Of a DNA stretch of 35,260 nt, positions 8,865-31,771 are shown one piece after another. The stretch comes from Fibrobacterota bacterium (lineage in GTDB: Bacteria > Fibrobacterota > Chitinivibrionia > Chitinivibrionales > Chitinispirillaceae). The position numbers were made by a program, and so were the translations under genes. The stretch spans positions 1 to 35,260 of the forward strand of contig PLTF01000072.1 in assembly GCA_003164335.1 (NCBI GenBank), given 5' to 3'. The first letter of the stretch is position 1. Every line of letters begins with the position of its first letter. The notes beneath the pieces are model-generated. The model was not told where the DNA came from, searched no databases, and saw nothing but the letters and a program-made list of their open reading frames with translations.

Positions 8865-8894
8865 TTGACTCTGATCCTTTACGTTATTTATTAT
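8865..8894 (+). promoter_or_regulatory. Promoter of the LamG/Fn3 secreted-protein gene
   Basis: TTGACT (8865-8870) and TATTAT (8889-8894) with an 18-bp spacer form a good sigma-70 promoter. This explains why the TTG at 8865, though in frame, is not a start codon. The leader would be about 70 bases long. Confidence 0.6.
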
Positions 8895-8972
8895 AAAAAA
8901 CGAGATAATCCTTACCTGTTCCCAGAGCAGGAATACTGTGCCGGCAAATTCTGTCACGAGAAGGGAGACCGT

Positions 8973-10823
8973 ATGAAATGGTTAGTGAAATTCATTTTAT
9001 CCTTCTTTTCATTGATTATGCTGTCAGCAGTGATGCAGCTTGCCGATGCACAGCAGAGTGTTGTGGCATACTGGTCGTTTGATTCGATGGTGGGCGATAC
9101 GTTCAAGGATATTTCCGGCAATGGGTACAATGCGATTGTGACAGGGACCGGAGTCGGGCTGGCGAGTGGGATAAAAGACAACGCTGTAGAATGCCCGATA
9201 GGGGGTGGATATGATATTGCAGTTGCCAATTCGGCGAACACCTTCGTCATGAATCATTTCAGCATTGAAGCCTGGGTGTCCATGGACGCCGTTCTTACCT
9301 ACAATCAGCAGCATATATTGAATTTTCAAAATACGACGGGGAGTAGTCGCAATGGGTATGCCTTAAACCTCTATAATGGAAGTCCGACTATAAGCTTTTC
9401 CTCTTTTGACGGAACGGTTTGGGTTAATTGCACAGCAGGGCAAATCATTCAAGCAAATACATGGTACCATTTGGTCGGTACTTTCGATAGTCTTAATTGG
9501 CGAATCTATCTCAATGGAGTTCTACAAGCAACATCGGCGGCAATGGGTGGAATTAATCCTCCCGGCGCTAACGCCAATATAGGATGTAAAAGGTCATCTA
9601 CTGGAGATTTCAGCTATTATTTAGGTGGAAAAATAGATGAACTTAAAGTATACAATTTCACCTTGCCAGCCGATTCAATTCTATCGCATTACCAGCTCTA
9701 TGCTCCTCCTCCCGGGTTGGTATCCCCTGCTAACAGCGCAGTTAATCAGGCGCTGACTCCCACCCTTACCTGGAGCTCCATTAACGGGGCATCATATACT
9801 CTGCAGGTTTCAACCAATTCTACATTTTTAACGACAATCATCGCTCAAACCGGCATTGTCGCCCTATCCTCGACAATAGCAGGTCTGGAGGATAGCACCG
9901 GCTATTATTGGCATGTAAACGCGACATCCTCTGCCGGCACCAGTAACTGGTCCGGCATATGGAATTTTACCACGGTACCGCAATTACCAGACATACCAGT
10001 ATTGGCTTCCCCATTAGATAGTACCTTGAATCAGCCGTTATCATTGTATTTAATCTGGAGTGTGGCTAATCATGCGGCTTCATACTCTTTGCAAGTATCG
10101 ACTTTGTCAATATTCTCCTCAACAGTCTCGAATCAATCAGGATTGACTTCAAATATAGCCATGGTCAATAGTCTTTCTAATAATGCAGTCTACTACTGGC
10201 GGGCAAATGCAGCCAACCCTGCCGGGACATCTCTATGGTCGGGCATATGGAGATTTAGCACTGCTTTTACCCCTCCTAATGTACCGGTTCTCCTTTCACC
10301 TGCGACCGGGACCATCGGCCAGCCGAATTCATTGAATGTTTATTGGAGTGCAGCAAACCTTGCAACAATGTATTCCCTGCAGGTTTCAACTTCATCGGCA
10401 TTTTTAACTACCATAGCCAACCAATCCGGAATAACCGGAGAATCTACCGCAATAAATGGTCTGCCTAATGATGCAGAGTTCTATTGGAGGGTAAATGCAT
10501 CCAATTCGGGCGGAACAAGTGGTTGGTCAAACGCCTGGAGTTTTATCGTCGGTCTTACTTCAGCTTCACTTTTAAAAAAAGATAATTTTGAACCGACTTT
10601 GTCTTTTAAGAATGGATTAATTTCATACTCTTTGAATCATCAATGTCCTATAGACATCAGAATTTACAACATCCTCGGCAGAAAAATATTTGAACTCAAT
10701 CGGTTTCAATCGCCAGGGAGTTACTCATTCTCCATACCGAGTCTTAAGCTATCCTCTGAACTGTATATTGTCCATTTTAAGGCGGGCACCCTGGAGAGAC
10801 AAATGACTGTATTGGGAAAATAA
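8973..10823 (+). CDS. Secreted LamG / fibronectin-like repeat protein with sorting-type tail
   Basis: The 616-residue protein starts MKWLVKFILSFFSLIM, a Sec signal peptide with likely cleavage after ADA (residue 26). Residues 30-215 form a LamG/concanavalin-like domain (VAYWSFDS, AWVSMD, YALNLYNG, WYHLVGTFDS, KIDELKVYN), usually a carbohydrate or ligand binder. Three repeats of about 93 residues follow (around 247, 338 and 435), each with a SP..... QP...L.WS...A..YSLQVST core and YYW..NA.N.AGTS.WS...F. The last 80 residues (IRIYNILGRKIFEL...GSYSFSIP...YIVHF) resemble type IX sorting tails. The ATG at 8973 has AAGGGAGA upstream. The second half is noticeably AT-richer than neighbouring housekeeping genes. 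Likely cell-surface adhesin or polysaccharide-binding protein. Confidence 0.85.
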   Translation: MKWLVKFILSFFSLIMLSAVMQLADAQQSVVAYWSFDSMVGDTFKDISGNGYNAIVTGTGVGLASGIKDNAVECPIGGGYDIAVANSANTFVMNHFSIEAWVSMDAVLTYNQQHILNFQNTTGSSRNGYALNLYNGSPTISFSSFDGTVWVNCTAGQIIQANTWYHLVGTFDSLNWRIYLNGVLQATSAAMGGINPPGANANIGCKRSSTGDFSYYLGGKIDELKVYNFTLPADSILSHYQLYAPPPGLVSPANSAVNQALTPTLTWSSINGASYTLQVSTNSTFLTTIIAQTGIVALSSTIAGLEDSTGYYWHVNATSSAGTSNWSGIWNFTTVPQLPDIPVLASPLDSTLNQPLSLYLIWSVANHAASYSLQVSTLSIFSSTVSNQSGLTSNIAMVNSLSNNAVYYWRANAANPAGTSLWSGIWRFSTAFTPPNVPVLLSPATGTIGQPNSLNVYWSAANLATMYSLQVSTSSAFLTTIANQSGITGESTAINGLPNDAEFYWRVNASNSGGTSGWSNAWSFIVGLTSASLLKKDNFEPTLSFKNGLISYSLNHQCPIDIRIYNILGRKIFELNRFQSPGSYSFSIPSLKLSSELYIVHFKAGTLERQMTVLGK

Positions 10824-18348: not shown

Positions 18349-19311
<963 letters not shown>

Positions 19312-19462
19312 CAGCCATCAGGGGATATTATAGAGAAGTTTCTCGGCCAGGAAATACTGGAAGAAATGTCGAACCGGAGAATTGAACAGGCACAGCGAGC
19401 GCATTACTAATAATTCCTCTTCTATCTGCAATCCTCTTTGAGGTAAAACCGTCAACTGGGAG

Positions 19463-19530
19463 CCGTATGCGGGAAATCCGCCTTTACGGTTCGGAGGGAG
19501 GGGGAATGAGTGATCATCTCTCCCTCCCCC
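19463..19530 (+). ncRNA. Probable group II intron 3' remnant (domains V and VI)
   Basis: GAGCCGTA pairs with TACGGTTC around an inner GCGG...CCGC stem with a GGGAAAT tip, matching the highly conserved domain V of bacterial group II introns, including the AGC triad and the closing GGTTC. A purine-rich GGAGGGAG (19493-19500) pairs with CTCCCTCC (19520-19527), as expected of domain VI. The inner loop lacks one expected base and the bulge reads CTT, so it looks degenerate. No reverse transcriptase ORF or 5' intron half is present, and the RND gene ends immediately after on the other strand. Confidence 0.55.
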
Positions 19531-19554
19531 TGCCCGAGCTGCAATCAAATTACC

Positions 19555-26255: not shown

Positions 26256-26816
26256 GTGAAAATGGGATTTCTTTTTTCCGGGCTATTCTGGGGAATTATT
26301 CTTATATTTCTCGGCGTTACGGTGATTATCAATCTTATTTTCCATGTTCATATCCCCCTTTTCAGGATAATTTTTGCCCTGCTGTTGATTTACCTCGGCT
26401 TTCGGGTCATGCTGGGAGGCAATTGGGGAGGGCATTCCCACTGCAGGAGCGCGGGAAATGCAATAATGTTCAGCGATGCGACTATTGCTTCAGACTCGGG
26501 TGATGGGGAGTACAGCATTATATTCGGCAAGGGGGTAGTCGAGGCGGGGTCGATTTTCGGCGCCGATACCCGGCGGCGATCGCTGCGTATCAACACGGTA
26601 TTCGGTTCTACCCTGGTTAGAATTCCAAGGAATATTCCCATAGCTATCCGGGCCTCTTCGGCATTCGGCGGAATTACGCTTCCTGATGGATCGACGACTG
26701 CATTTGGCGAGACGATCTATAGAAATGGAGCTTGCAGAGCAACTGCCGATGAATCGGCAATCTGCACGGTCAATGTCAGTGCGGTTTTTGGAGCGTGCCG
26801 AATTGAGGAACGTTAA
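26256..26816 (+). CDS. LiaF/YvqF-like membrane protein
   Basis: The 186-residue protein has two N-terminal transmembrane segments (GLFWGIILIFLGVTVIINLIF and FRIIFALLLIYLGFRVMLG). A C-terminal beta-rich domain follows, with repeated short strands (YSIIFGKGVVEAGSIFGADT, SLRINTVFGSTLVRIP, IRASSAFGGITLPDG). This is the LiaF/cell-wall-active-antibiotic response pattern. In Firmicutes LiaF restrains envelope-stress sensing; in Gram-negatives similar proteins are uncharacterised. GTG at 26256 follows GGAGG by 5 bases; ATG at 26262 is an alternative. It is divergent from tetR and so could share an envelope-stress theme, but that is speculative. A strong palindrome follows the gene at 26867-26908. Confidence 0.75.
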   Translation: MKMGFLFSGLFWGIILIFLGVTVIINLIFHVHIPLFRIIFALLLIYLGFRVMLGGNWGGHSHCRSAGNAIMFSDATIASDSGDGEYSIIFGKGVVEAGSIFGADTRRRSLRINTVFGSTLVRIPRNIPIAIRASSAFGGITLPDGSTTAFGETIYRNGACRATADESAICTVNVSAVFGACRIEER

Positions 26817-26866
26817 GCCGAATCGCTACAGCAAGCGAATTACCGGTAATTCTTGCCATCTTATTT

Positions 26867-26908
26867 ATTGAAACTCCCCGTAGCATGCATGCTGCGGGGA
26901 GTTTCAAT
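26867..26908. terminator. 42-bp near-perfect palindrome after the liaF-like gene
   Basis: Arms ATTGAAACTCCCCG-TAGCATG and CATGCTG-CGGGGAGTTTCAAT (21 bp each, one mismatch that is a U-G wobble in RNA) join without a spacer. In RNA this makes a very stable hairpin 50 bp past the stop. No T-tract follows, so factor-independent termination is possible but not canonical. Confidence 0.55.
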
Positions 26909-27114
26909 TCTCTGCAATCTGCCTGATGGCCTTTTCGCCGAAAAAACGTTGACCGCCTGTGATAAACCATATTTCTTGAACAGCGCAGGTAACGACCCTG
27001 TAACCTTCTATTTCGCAGGTGTTTAGGGCCTTGATGAGATAGAAAATTATAGTATCGACTCAAGGATGCAAATACTTTCGGTACTTCTGAAAAAATGTAG
27101 TAATTTTATAAAGG
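26909..27114. other. Gene-free stretch before the sigma-54 promoter
   Basis: Nothing coding is supported here. Two GCAGGTG/GCAGGTAACG-like words occur near 26983 and 27014, and the sequence is AT-rich from 27030 on. The position suits an upstream activator site for the sigma-54 promoter, but no clean dyad was found. Confidence 0.3.
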
Positions 27115-27130
27115 TGGCACGCAATTTGCA
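27115..27130 (+). promoter_or_regulatory. Sigma-54 (RpoN) promoter of the VWA protein gene
   Basis: TGGCACG (27115-27121), four bases, then TTGCA (27126-27130) matches the RpoN consensus at every strongly conserved position. GG (27116-27117) and GC (27128-27129) are exactly 10 bases apart. Transcription would start near 27140, about 105 bases before the ATG. The leader can fold GGGTTTT (27162-27168) against AAAACCC (27197-27203). Confidence 0.78.
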
Positions 27131-27245
27131 CTTTTGTTTCCAGGGAAAAGATACCCATTGAGGGTTTTAAAATCTACGGCTTTGCTGTTCTGCGAAAAAA
27201 CCCAAAGAGAAGGGGGGCTTTTCTATGCGCCTTAACGGAGGGATA

Positions 27246-30200
27246 ATGCAGCAAAAAATACTGAATTGCGCTTTTATTCTGGCTTTGGTTGTTTGCGGAT
27301 CCTCATTTGCCGTCACCGTGGGGAAGTTCAGCTATCTTGGAGCTCCGGAAGATTATAACGGGGATACCATGAAGGTGAACGACACCATCGTTGCAATGTC
27401 GAATCAGATTTTTGTTAAAAACCAGACGATTACCAGCGCAATCCCGGATACCCCGTGTGTTTTTTTTGTTATCGACAACTCGTCCAGCATGAGTTATTAC
27501 AATTTTGATGGCAACCATCCCCTGAGCGATTCTCTCGGATATCGTTTCAAAGTCGCCAACGCATTGATCGATACGCTCTACAAGCATTATCCCTCGGCTC
27601 AGGTCGGTATCGCCGTCTTTGATTCCGGACTCGATTACAACGTGTCTACCGACCCTACCGTCATGACCGCCTGTCCCGCACCCTACAACACGTCGGGTCT
27701 GGGAGCCTATATGAAGCTCCTCACCCTGAACGGCTCCTATGAGGGAACCACCGGGCTTGCCCTGGCGCATAAGTACCTGCATGATTCACTGTACGCTCTT
27801 AGTACCGCCAATCAATATCAGGGCCAGACCAAATACTACGACCTTGTGTATAACGCGCATAAATTACGAGGCAATACCAATATCGACATCGGCTTTACAG
27901 CTGCTAAAAATGCGATGCTCCTGGCAACGCACCCGAAGCAGGATCGGTATGTCATCTTCCAGTCCGACGGGGCTTCGAATTGCTGCGGAACCACTACCTG
28001 GAACTTCATGAATCCGGGCGACTCGATGCCTACCACCTATACCATTTATTACAACAGAATTCCCGCCGACTCCGTCGCCGATATCGACAGCATGACGAAA
28101 ATGAATACCAACATCCGGAATGACGGGTACTCGGTCAACAACCCCCGAAGCACGTTATATCCCTTTTTAATCAGTTCCTATTCTTCACTCCTGACCTTTT
28201 TAATGAATAACGTTTATACGGCGATCGCCACCTCGACCCTTGCCGGACCGGCAAGCATTACGATCGGAACCCAGACTGCCACCTCATGGGTCGATTCGTC
28301 TTTTACCTTCAACAACCTGTTCCCGCTCACCGGAGCGTTTACGCCATTCACCTACGATATTAGTTACGCAATTGCGATAAACGGTACCGTCTTTGCCGAT
28401 ACTACCCACGTCATCAATTTCGAGGTAGCACGGATACCGGGCCAGGCCATCGATACCACGCAATTCCAGATCCAGCGATGGGACCGGTCGCTCGTATGCC
28501 GGTATAACGGGGAGGTAGTTTCGGCGATTACCGACCAGATGGATTCGATAGAATTGCGGTTCGGCTTCTCCCCCGGAACGGCAAATTACAGTTACAGTAC
28601 GGTAAAGGTGCAGCTGTCCACCACCACCGGCCCGCAGACCGACAGCGAGGTTTATACGCTCTCGCGTATCGGGACAACCGATACCTTCTCGGTAAAATTC
28701 AAAGATACCACGCTCATTCCTTCGGTGAAGGGCGACGGCATTCTGGAACACTCTTCCCCCATTGATACCATCGTCGCAGTATTCAAGAATCGTGAGACGC
28801 CCCAGCTTCCCATGGATACCCTGCGGTTTGCCTGCCCGGTTTATGTTTCACCCGGGCAAATATTTCTATCGGTCATTAATGACACCATTTATGCCGGCGA
28901 TACCGCTACCATTTCCGGCTGGGTAGCGACCGCCAGGGGCGATACGCTCCCGTCGCTCCGCAACTCCATTTCCTGGACGCAAAACCCGCCTGTTGACCCC
29001 GGTGATGCCCTTATCGGCGCAACCGGCGGTACGACTCGCTTTACCGCGACCCAGGCCTTCGATTCCACCGGCAACTATCGCAGGATTCCCATCATGGCCT
29101 CGGTGGTCAATCCCTACAACACCGCCAGGACCGTAACGGCCACGGCCTATGTCGTCGTTCTGCCGCGACCTTCCGGATACAGCATCGGGGTCGAACGATA
29201 TTCAGACACCGCTCTGTCCAGTAATAACATCCTCACCGGCCGGTCGAACTTTTACTGGGTCGCAGCAGGGTTACCAACCATCCCCATGAATTCGCAGATC
29301 GATACCCTCTATACATATGCCGTGGTTCGCGATACCTTCGGGAACTATATCCGGTTGACCGATTCGGCCACTTCCTGGACCGCGCTCAATCCCGACACGG
29401 TCGGCGCCCAGGTGAAGAGTGCAAAGGGTATTGTAAATTTCGGTCTTATTTCACGCGTCAATGGCGTCTCTTCAGGAAGCGGGGCGGTAGTCGTTACCGA
29501 TACCTCGTGCCGCCGGCCCGATACGGTGCTTGTCCAGCTTCACTCGGGTTCGCTGGTTGCGATAGGCCTGTTTAGCGCCGCCGACACGGTCCATCCTATC
29601 GATACTCTCAGTTTGAGTACCGACCAGTCGATTAACCTGCTGGTCCAGGGAGAGTATTCCGGAGCGCCTGCGACGTGGGTCCAAATCCCCGCACTGTGGA
29701 GCATGGCGCCCAACCCGGATACGCTCAAATTTACCGTCCCGGTTCCTGCAGTTAACGCCATTACCTGGACCTGCACCCCGCTTACTGCGGGACATGCGCT
29801 CCTTACCCTGAGCTCTGCAGGGCAGTCGGTGACCATACCGGTGATTATAACGGCTTCCAGTGTTGACACCGTACATCTTGTCCTGGTAACCAATCCGGAT
29901 TCCTGCTTTGCGGGTCGACCCATTAAGCTCGCAGCTTCGATCGGCAATACCCATGGGCTCCTTCCCGGTTCGTCGGTGCAGTCGAGCGTTTACCACGATT
30001 TTCTCAATAACAACCTGCGCCCCGAATTCCTGCCCTGGCTGATCGTCAATGGCGGAGCGACTCCGGACTCGCTGGATAAACCGCTGCAGGAGTCGTTTTC
30101 CAACGGTACGGATACCCTGTACCTGGTGCTGTACTATGCACCGGGGTCGCCCGACAGCCTGCACCGGATTCAGCTGACGCTGAGCAGCGTCCTTCAGGCG

Positions 30201-31703
30201 ACGACGGTTCCCTTCAGGCTCCATCCCGCCATCATCGATTCCCTGCAGATTGAGGATACCAACGGAGTGCATCTCATCGATACGGTCATCCTGTCGCAGA
30301 CGAATCCAAGCGATTCCCTGCTTGCGCGCGGTTTCGACAAGTATGGAAATCCGGTCAACCTCGATTCGAGTGCCGGGGCGATCCTGAATTCCACCATCTG
30401 GTCGGCGGAAGGTTCCATTCCGCAACCGGCGGTCTCTACGGGAGCCGACATTTATTACACCGCCTCAGCGGTGCGGGCCATCCAGACCGGCAGTGTCTGG
30501 GCCACGCTGGTCACCGACTCCGCCACACTTCGGACCTCGGTACCGGTTAAGGTACTGCCGTCTCTTCCGTATCTTGTTTCCGCCATTACCCGGGACCGGA
30601 TCGGGGGCATTTACGATTCGTCCGACGGCTTGATTGACGAGATAGACTGCTACTTTAATACCGCGGTGAACATCACGAGCGCGGATTATGTCTATTTCTC
30701 GGCGGTCTACGGCACGGATACCCTGAAAGTCACCGGCATTACGCAGTTGAGCGACAGCGCCTATGCGCTCTCGATTCACGACTCCTTGACCAACCTGAGC
30801 GTGCCGCAAACATCCTGGAAACCTGCCGTAACGATCAATAACCTGCCGGTTACGATCAACGGCTCTGTTGTGGCGGCAGACGGGTGCGCCCCGGTGGTCT
30901 GGCAGGTGATCAAACATGCCAACGGGCCGAGCCACCAGAACGATGTCGTCGAGGTGCTTTTCAGCGAAAACATCTTCAACCGGTCGGGCGGACAATTTAC
31001 GACTGCCAACCAGCCCTCCCAGACCCTGATGGCATATACCCTGACCCCGACGGGGTATGTCGCGATCGATTCCATGTTCAGCAATATTGTCGGGTTCAAC
31101 AGCAACCAGCCCGACAGCGTTCTGTTTTTTACCATGAGCAACGGGGCCAATCTGACCGACACGGATTATGTCAACATCGTGACGCCGAATTGCCTGATCC
31201 AAGATCAACACGGCAATGTTCCTCCGGAAGACAACCATCGCTGCCGGGTGACGATTACCGGCAATGCGATCAGCCTGGTAACCTTTCCTAATCCGAGCAA
31301 AGGTATCTTCACGCATCATACTTCGAGCGGGAACAACGGCGATATCGATTTTTTCGACCAGCCGCAGGCATCGCAGTGGGTCCAGCAGGATAATGCAGGA
31401 TTCATCCTGCAACTGCAAGGGGTCAACTGGCCGCAGATCGGCACCGGGAACGTCGGTGCGCACCTGGAGATTTACGATATCGTCGGCAACATGGTTAACT
31501 CCGCGCAAACCGACAACCTGCTCAGGAAAAACGTGCAGGGCAGTTCAAATGTGACCAGTGTGTCAATCTATTGGAACGGCGGAAACCGCAAGGGAATGCT
31601 TACCTCTCCGGGGATTTATCGCGCGGTCGTCTCCATCACCTATCCGGCCAATACCCTTAACTATAAGAATGCCCGGCTGATAACAAAACTCGGAGTCCGA
31701 TAG
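27246..31703 (+). CDS. Large secreted VWA-domain protein with sorting-type C-terminus
   Basis: The 1485-residue protein has a signal peptide (ILNCAFILALVVCGSSFA). A VWA domain spans about 70-320, with an intact MIDAS DNSSS (Asp77) and FQSDGASNCCG near 239. About a thousand residues of Thr/Asp/Val-rich beta-sandwich repeats follow (many xGDTxxxxGW and DTL strands). The tail LEIYDIVGNMVNS...GIYRAVVSITYP resembles type IX sorting or FlgD-Ig domains. It is probably a surface or extracellular metal-dependent adhesin or filament component. The ATG at 27246 is favoured over 27225 because GGAGGG lies 3 bases upstream and the signal peptide starts there. Transcription is predicted to be RpoN-dependent. 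No operon partner. Confidence 0.85.
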   Translation: MQQKILNCAFILALVVCGSSFAVTVGKFSYLGAPEDYNGDTMKVNDTIVAMSNQIFVKNQTITSAIPDTPCVFFVIDNSSSMSYYNFDGNHPLSDSLGYRFKVANALIDTLYKHYPSAQVGIAVFDSGLDYNVSTDPTVMTACPAPYNTSGLGAYMKLLTLNGSYEGTTGLALAHKYLHDSLYALSTANQYQGQTKYYDLVYNAHKLRGNTNIDIGFTAAKNAMLLATHPKQDRYVIFQSDGASNCCGTTTWNFMNPGDSMPTTYTIYYNRIPADSVADIDSMTKMNTNIRNDGYSVNNPRSTLYPFLISSYSSLLTFLMNNVYTAIATSTLAGPASITIGTQTATSWVDSSFTFNNLFPLTGAFTPFTYDISYAIAINGTVFADTTHVINFEVARIPGQAIDTTQFQIQRWDRSLVCRYNGEVVSAITDQMDSIELRFGFSPGTANYSYSTVKVQLSTTTGPQTDSEVYTLSRIGTTDTFSVKFKDTTLIPSVKGDGILEHSSPIDTIVAVFKNRETPQLPMDTLRFACPVYVSPGQIFLSVINDTIYAGDTATISGWVATARGDTLPSLRNSISWTQNPPVDPGDALIGATGGTTRFTATQAFDSTGNYRRIPIMASVVNPYNTARTVTATAYVVVLPRPSGYSIGVERYSDTALSSNNILTGRSNFYWVAAGLPTIPMNSQIDTLYTYAVVRDTFGNYIRLTDSATSWTALNPDTVGAQVKSAKGIVNFGLISRVNGVSSGSGAVVVTDTSCRRPDTVLVQLHSGSLVAIGLFSAADTVHPIDTLSLSTDQSINLLVQGEYSGAPATWVQIPALWSMAPNPDTLKFTVPVPAVNAITWTCTPLTAGHALLTLSSAGQSVTIPVIITASSVDTVHLVLVTNPDSCFAGRPIKLAASIGNTHGLLPGSSVQSSVYHDFLNNNLRPEFLPWLIVNGGATPDSLDKPLQESFSNGTDTLYLVLYYAPGSPDSLHRIQLTLSSVLQATTVPFRLHPAIIDSLQIEDTNGVHLIDTVILSQTNPSDSLLARGFDKYGNPVNLDSSAGAILNSTIWSAEGSIPQPAVSTGADIYYTASAVRAIQTGSVWATLVTDSATLRTSVPVKVLPSLPYLVSAITRDRIGGIYDSSDGLIDEIDCYFNTAVNITSADYVYFSAVYGTDTLKVTGITQLSDSAYALSIHDSLTNLSVPQTSWKPAVTINNLPVTINGSVVAADGCAPVVWQVIKHANGPSHQNDVVEVLFSENIFNRSGGQFTTANQPSQTLMAYTLTPTGYVAIDSMFSNIVGFNSNQPDSVLFFTMSNGANLTDTDYVNIVTPNCLIQDQHGNVPPEDNHRCRVTITGNAISLVTFPNPSKGIFTHHTSSGNNGDIDFFDQPQASQWVQQDNAGFILQLQGVNWPQIGTGNVGAHLEIYDIVGNMVNSAQTDNLLRKNVQGSSNVTSVSIYWNGGNRKGMLTSPGIYRAVVSITYPANTLNYKNARLITKLGVR

Positions 31704-31719
31704 TTTTATTGAAAATTCG

Positions 31720-31771
31720 TTACTACTCAGGTGGGGAAACCATGAAATGGTTTCCCCACCAGAGGCACCAA
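31720..31771 (+). repeat. Modular repeat, copy R7 (stem C), upstream of ybeY
   Basis: Terminal TTACTACTCAGGT is followed by a 14-bp perfect stem GGTGGGGAAACCAT/ATGGTTTCCCCACC (31730-31743/31747-31760, 3-base loop) and the family edge AGAGGCACCA. AGAGG at 31761-31765 is placed to act as the ribosome-binding site of ybeY. Confidence 0.83.

What the first reader, a model, noticed from the sequence alone, without database searches (positions are those of the whole stretch)
27115..27245. Near-perfect sigma-54 promoter in front of a giant VWA surface protein
TGGCACG-N4-TTGCA with GG and GC 10 bases apart matches the RpoN consensus. RpoN control of a 1485-residue extracellular protein implies signal-activated surface remodelling through an enhancer-binding protein. 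The 105-base leader can form a GGGTTTT/AAAACCC stem.
Basis: partly seen in the sequence, partly recalled or inferred. Interest (0 to 1): 0.55.

Follow-up and report, generated by a model that had tools for sequence, protein, structure and literature searches.

The report
Sigma-54 promoter before VWA surface gene
A textbook sigma-54 (RpoN) switch really does sit in front of a giant secreted von Willebrand A-type protein gene of an uncultured Chitinispirillaceae-like bacterium, in a genome with the matching sigma factor and activators, but what signal it answers is unknown and the arrangement was not found in relatives.

Summary
Window 27115-27130 (+) reads TGGCACG-CAAT-TTGCA, 12 of 12 to the sigma-54 -24/-12 consensus. 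It lies in an intergenic stretch after a 19-pair hairpin, 94 and 115 nt before two in-frame ATGs of a VWA gene; a second strong hairpin follows that gene. It is more than chance: 7 exact sites in the genome against 1 for the reversed pattern, 79 against 19 over 24 family genomes, and sites with at most one mismatch fall outside ORFs in 27 of 41 cases against 3 of 35. The genome has one rpoN and 9 proteins with the activator loop motif. So a real sigma-54 promoter is likely. The wider reading, signal-activated surface remodelling, is untested: no activator site was found, and 0 of 60 fetched upstream regions of homologues have a site with 11 or more matches. Other sites precede flagellar, thioredoxin, peroxiredoxin, chaperone, ferritin and outer-membrane genes. 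The leader stem exists but the whole leader folds no better than chance. Ordinary in kind, locally new in target.

The parts
27115..27130 (+). sigma-54 type -24/-12 promoter element TGGCACG-CAAT-TTGCA
   Evidence: 12 of 12 to consensus; 7 exact in genome against 1 reversed control; context test
27141..27245 (+). predicted leader from the inferred +1 (27141) to the second ATG; holds a 7-bp stem 27162-27168/27197-27203
   Evidence: inferred by spacing; stem; whole leader z -0.41
27225..31703 (+). ORF for giant secreted VWA protein; start at 27225 (1492 aa) or 27246 (1485 aa)
   Evidence: VWA_2 5.4e-6 on the N-terminal 553 aa, just over the cut-off; matches in 37 of 60 genomes searched, own included
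26867..26908 (+). 19-pair hairpin (one G-U pair) after the upstream LiaF-like gene, probably a terminator that isolates the unit
   Evidence: -32.9 kcal/mol, z -10.2, 0 of 200 shuffles as good; not reported by the terminator scan, which asks for a T run
31730..31760 (+). hairpin after the stop codon of the VWA gene, before ybeY; probable 3' end of the unit
   Evidence: -29.7 kcal/mol, z -5.8, 0 of 200 shuffles as good; not reported by the terminator scan
26256..26816 (+). upstream gene, weakly LiaF-like membrane protein; not part of the promoter unit
   Evidence: LiaF-like_C E 0.0018 below cut-off; LiaF_C_term 2.2e-4 below cut-off

Best explanation
It is a genuine sigma-54-dependent promoter for a stand-alone gene bounded by two strong hairpins. 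RNA polymerase with RpoN binds 27115-27130 and stays closed until one of the genome's AAA+ enhancer-binding proteins remodels it, giving a transcript from about 27141 that encodes an exported VWA-domain protein, probably an adhesin-like or scaffolding cell-surface protein. Shown: motif, context, enrichment, rpoN, activators, VWA residues. Inferred: use of the site, start point, export, function of the protein. Unknown: which activator and which signal. The placement looks specific to this lineage, as if one member of a large secreted VWA family had been brought under a pre-existing sigma-54 network that otherwise serves motility, redox and chaperone genes.
For: Exact 12 of 12 site, next best in the intergenic stretch 8 of 12. 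Exact sites 7 against 1 in the genome and 79 against 19 in 24 family genomes. 5 of the 7 exact sites in the genome, this one included, lie outside ORFs within 250 nt upstream of a same-strand gene. Sites up to 1 mismatch: 27 of 41 outside ORFs against 3 of 35 control. Single rpoN, DBD E 6.7e-59, 479-aa frame with ARRTVAKYRE box; 9 of 15 Sigma54_activat hits carry a G[AS]FT[GD]A loop. Other sites precede genes long tied to sigma-54 (recalled): a rod-binding FlgJ-like gene and, in relatives, flagellins and FlgB (named by eye). No sigma-70 type site in 26700-27300. VWA family and MIDAS residues.
Against: 0 of 60 homologue upstream regions have a site of 11 or more of 12; the best, 10 of 12, is in L136. 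The nearest homologue (same genus, 48% identity) has only a TGGCATTTTTGTTGTT string without the -12 GC (read), lies in another gene neighbourhood (beside a pyruvate:ferredoxin oxidoreductase-like gene, named by eye), and its genome shows no enrichment of sites (15 against 30 reversed at up to 1 mismatch). No dyad upstream of the site beats shuffles (34, 87 and 54 of 100 shuffles as good in three nested regions). The activator-site-like repeat found at five other promoters is not here. No expression data. The exact count 7 against 1 alone is p 0.07 by a two-sided binomial; the case rests on location and on the family.
Confidence: 0.85

Rival explanations
1. Chance match: the string is a coincidence and the gene is read from an unrecognised housekeeping promoter of this phylum.
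For: About 1 exact site is expected by composition; reversed control gives 1; homologues lack the site; the sigma-70 scan uses a consensus that may not fit this phylum.
Against: A chance exact site would most likely fall inside a gene (3 of 35 control sites outside ORFs), so an exact chance site on the right strand and at the right distance is expected about 0.1 times per genome (1.04 x 3/35), against 5 seen among the 7 exact sites.
Confidence: 0.1
2. RpoN binds, but as a poised or blocking site: no activator acts here, or it overlaps another promoter.
For: No activator site could be found.
Against: Single site, correct spacing to the gene, no second promoter-like element in the stretch. Activator sites are often unrecognisable without knowing the activator (recalled).
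Confidence: 0.05
3. The leader hairpin is the regulatory element (riboswitch or thermometer), the promoter being secondary.
For: Stem 27162-27168/27197-27203; 47-nt piece z -2.35.
Against: Whole leader z -0.41; no Rfam family there at gathering score; no homologous leader in hand to test covariation.
Confidence: 0.04

Closest known systems
Sigma-54 (RpoN) -24/-12 promoters with bacterial enhancer-binding proteins
   Same: Consensus, spacing, rpoN, activators with GAFTGA-type loops, flagellar and other typical targets in the same family of genomes
   Different: Target is a giant VWA protein; activator and its site not identified
Sigma-54 as controller of the bacterial exterior (Francke et al. 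2011, PMC3162934; passages read)
   Same: An exported protein under a sigma-54 site; two outer-membrane beta-barrel genes also have near-consensus sites
   Different: The theme there is EPS, LPS, flagella, lipoproteins and wall precursors; 'von Willebrand', 'extracellular protein' and 'fibrobacter' do not occur in its main text
Sigma-54 control of heat-shock proteins in Bacteroidota and Planctomycetota (PMC12316311; passages read)
   Same: DnaK, GroES and small-HSP-like genes follow sigma-54 sites here too (partly named by eye)
   Different: 'fibrobacter' and 'thioredoxin' do not occur in that main text; here thioredoxins, peroxiredoxins and ferritin-like proteins join

Membership tests
Sigma-54 promoter | GG and GC ten bases apart within TGGCACGN4TTGCW | tested here: met
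   12 of 12
Sigma-54 promoter | rpoN in the genome | tested here: met
   one copy, E 6.7e-59; RpoN box in a 479-aa frame
Sigma-54 promoter | Enhancer-binding proteins with GAFTGA-type loop in the genome | tested here: met
   15 Sigma54_activat hits, 9 of 15 with G[AS]FT[GD]A
Sigma-54 promoter | Activator binding site upstream of this promoter | tested here: inconclusive
   no dyad better than shuffles; shared repeat of five other promoters absent
Sigma-54 promoter | Transcription from about 12 nt after the GC, dependent on RpoN | not testable with these tools
   needs RNA
Sigma-54 promoter | Conservation of the site before homologues (supporting, not defining) | tested here: not met
   0 of 60 upstream regions with 11 or more of 12
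VWA-domain protein | VWA profile match over cut-off | tested here: met
   PF13519 27.4 bits against 27 on the N-terminal 553 aa; below cut-off (24.2) on the whole protein; 9 of 12 aligned sequences match PF13519 at E 0.001
VWA-domain protein | MIDAS residues DxSxS, T, D | tested here: met
   D77, S79, S81, T211, D241 invariant in 12 of 12; the reading as MIDAS is recalled
T9SS-type sorted surface protein | C-terminal sorting domain over cut-off | tested here: not met
   Por_Secre_tail E 0.017, 15.8 bits against 27

The most novel reading that the evidence does not exclude
In this Chitinispirillaceae-like lineage sigma-54 runs a broad motility, redox and chaperone programme, and one member of a large family of secreted VWA proteins has been captured by it in this lineage only, so that the cell changes its surface together with swimming and stress state, for instance when it attaches to or leaves a particle.
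Probability: 0.3. Interest if true: 0.5.

Novelty: new member of a known kind. Interest (0 to 1): 0.28.

Why it matters
Searches of the held library for Fibrobacter with rpoN, and for Chitinispirill with sigma-54, gave no paper on a sigma-54 regulon in this phylum, judged by title and start of abstract. The promoter itself is of a well-known kind.

Tried and rejected
Conservation footprint: 60 upstream regions of N-terminal homologues were fetched and scanned. They come from the listed matches that start near the protein's N-terminus; the match list was itself cut, some listed homologues that start after about residue 35 were left out, and at least seven regions are shortened by contig ends. 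No conserved site.

Congener without rpoN: G001 gave no rpoN hit, which first looked like loss; but it has five strong activator hits and is 82% complete, so missing assembly is as likely. Not used as evidence.

Activator site: dyad search, repeat search and pairwise comparison with 28 other upstream regions gave nothing beyond chance for this promoter. A match of 13 of 16 at similar offset with L029 is no better than many other pairs; a 14 of 16 match with L282 lies in the upstream hairpin.

Leader stem as a regulatory RNA: whole leader no better than shuffles; no Rfam match there.

Solved-structure search with the VWA alignment A1: 0 matches at E 0.01. No structure prediction was run.

Organism: the VWA protein query found no titled relative; a MiaB-like query gave Chitinispirillaceae MAGs as the best two of 80 loci (50% and 47%). 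The family name is therefore by nearest neighbour.

Full report
What is there. The intergenic stretch between the upstream LiaF-like gene (26256-26816) and the VWA gene (27225-31703) has a 19-pair hairpin at 26867-26908 and then one striking element, TGGCACG-CAAT-TTGCA at 27115-27130. It matches the sigma-54 consensus at 12 of 12 scored positions; the next best 16-mer in 26909-27224 scores 8. A sigma-70 type scan of 26700-27300 found nothing, with 0.9 expected by chance. A second hairpin, 31730-31760, follows the stop codon and precedes ybeY (the family of ybeY), so the gene looks like a single transcription unit. The terminator scans reported neither hairpin, so calling them terminators is inference.

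Is it more than chance. In the window alone the number of sites with up to two mismatches equals expectation (11 against 11.17). In the 3.81-Mb genome there are 7 exact sites against 1 for the reversed pattern, with 1.04 expected from the window's base composition. In the 24 genomes of the family together there are 79 against 19 (my sum of its rows; p 7e-10); two of the 24 (G007, G009) have none on either count and the congener G001 has 0 against 1. With one mismatch allowed the raw counts in the own genome are 41 against 35, so counts alone say little, but location separates them: outside ORFs 27 of 41 against 3 of 35, and within 250 nt upstream of a same-strand gene 22 of 41 against 3 of 35. 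The ORF caller in that script is crude (longest ORF first) and calls some likely promoter sites coding, such as L004, L008 and L018, so the contrast is if anything understated.

Machinery. One rpoN copy, with a 479-aa frame that holds an ARRTVAKYRE box near its end. Fifteen Sigma54_activat hits, 12 of them with E below 1e-29; nine of 15 carry the G[AS]FT[GD]A loop. One activator gene (C103:5953-6453) lies beside a thioredoxin gene with a near-exact site (L027). The nearest activator on the window's own contig is at C86:94173, about 67 kb from the site. rpoN is found in 56 of 60 genomes searched, own included.

What else has such sites. Pfam on 20 downstream proteins of own-genome sites (20 chosen of 41 sites) named thioredoxin (2), a rod-binding plus transglycosylase FlgJ-like protein, NADH dehydrogenase chain 3, AhpC/TSA peroxiredoxin, ferritin-like (2), outer-membrane beta-barrel (2), HSP70, FtsH, DoxX, PRC-barrel, DUF2934, a weak IS200-like transposase and a weak Kelch hit; four had no Pfam family. 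Two small membrane proteins are Thivi_2564 family. In relatives, 53 of 72 exact sites have a likely start codon with Shine-Dalgarno-like sequence within 330 nt; by eye (names recalled, no call) about 24 of the 53 are flagellar (flagellins, FlgB-, FlgJ-, FlgG- and FlgK-like) and others look like small heat-shock proteins, GroES, DnaK, thioredoxin, peroxiredoxins and NifH; 19 of the 72 had no such start. So the network is real and mixed; it is not a surface-protein regulon as such.

The protein. 1492 or 1485 aa. The N-terminal 553 aa match VWA_2 just over cut-off; DxSxS, T and D of the metal site are invariant in 12 of 12 aligned sequences. The middle has no Pfam family at E 1; the C-terminus has a sub-threshold sorting-domain hit. 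Matches at E up to 0.001 occur in 37 of 60 genomes (own included), all within the same order; many match only the VWA part or only the C-terminal half or so. Homologues are multi-copy in many genomes.

What speaks against the larger story. None of 60 upstream regions of homologues has a site of 11 or more matches; best values are 10 (one) and 9 (four), while the antisense control reaches 9 (two). In the congener the homologue stands beside a different gene and lacks the site. No activator site was found for this promoter, and the repeat CACAAAYARGAA that stands 51-53 bases before five other GGCAYG elements in this genome, with no match for the reversed pattern, is not in this stretch. The signal is therefore unknown.

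Literature. Francke et al. 2011 (PMC3162934, passages) argue that sigma-54 mainly controls the cell exterior; PMC12316311 (passages) reports sigma-54 enrichment before heat-shock genes in Bacteroidota and Planctomycetota. Neither main text contains 'fibrobacter'. The description of Chitinispirillum alkaliphilum (PMC4814513, passages) reports flagellated cells that attach to chitin and later detach; that is the only basis for the attachment idea in the novel case, and it concerns another organism. A search joining Chitinispirill with sigma-54 gave no paper, and Fibrobacter with rpoN gave nine, none on a Fibrobacter regulon by title and abstract start.

Verdict. A genuine sigma-54 promoter is the best reading (0.85). 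Its biology beyond that is open. New member of a known kind; interest 0.28.

Noticed in passing
L008, L018, L019, L277, L364 (G000:C160:35412, C81:18395, C81:21229, C134:45327, C148:28110): A shared element CACAAAYARGAA 51-53 bases before five sigma-54-like GGCAYG elements, none for the reversed pattern; a likely activator site of one enhancer-binding protein, ahead of Thivi_2564 membrane proteins, a ferritin-like protein and others. In the 59 other genomes only two single hits.
   Followed up: partly
L168-L195, L320-L363: In this family exact sigma-54 sites stand before flagellin, FlgB, FlgJ, small HSP, GroES, DnaK, thioredoxin, peroxiredoxin and NifH-like genes (named by eye): a mixed motility and stress network.
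   Followed up: partly
L007 and L011 (G000:C149:14726 and C14:611): Two near-identical promoter regions with nearly the same NuoA-like start, one exact site and one with one mismatch; a duplicated or strain-variant nuo operon start.
   Followed up: no
window 19458-19531 (+): Rfam group II intron match, 42.3 bits against 40; the preceding ORF 18349-19311 is DUF1186, not a reverse transcriptase.
   Followed up: no
G010, G015, G020, G021, G023, G040 rpoN: The Sigma54_DBD match is split in two pieces with extra sequence between them, as if the RpoN DNA-binding domain of genus g10 and of one other genome carried an insertion.
   Followed up: no
window 8865-10823 (+): Another large, probably exported protein with laminin-G and fibronectin III domains and a sub-threshold T9SS tail.
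   Followed up: no
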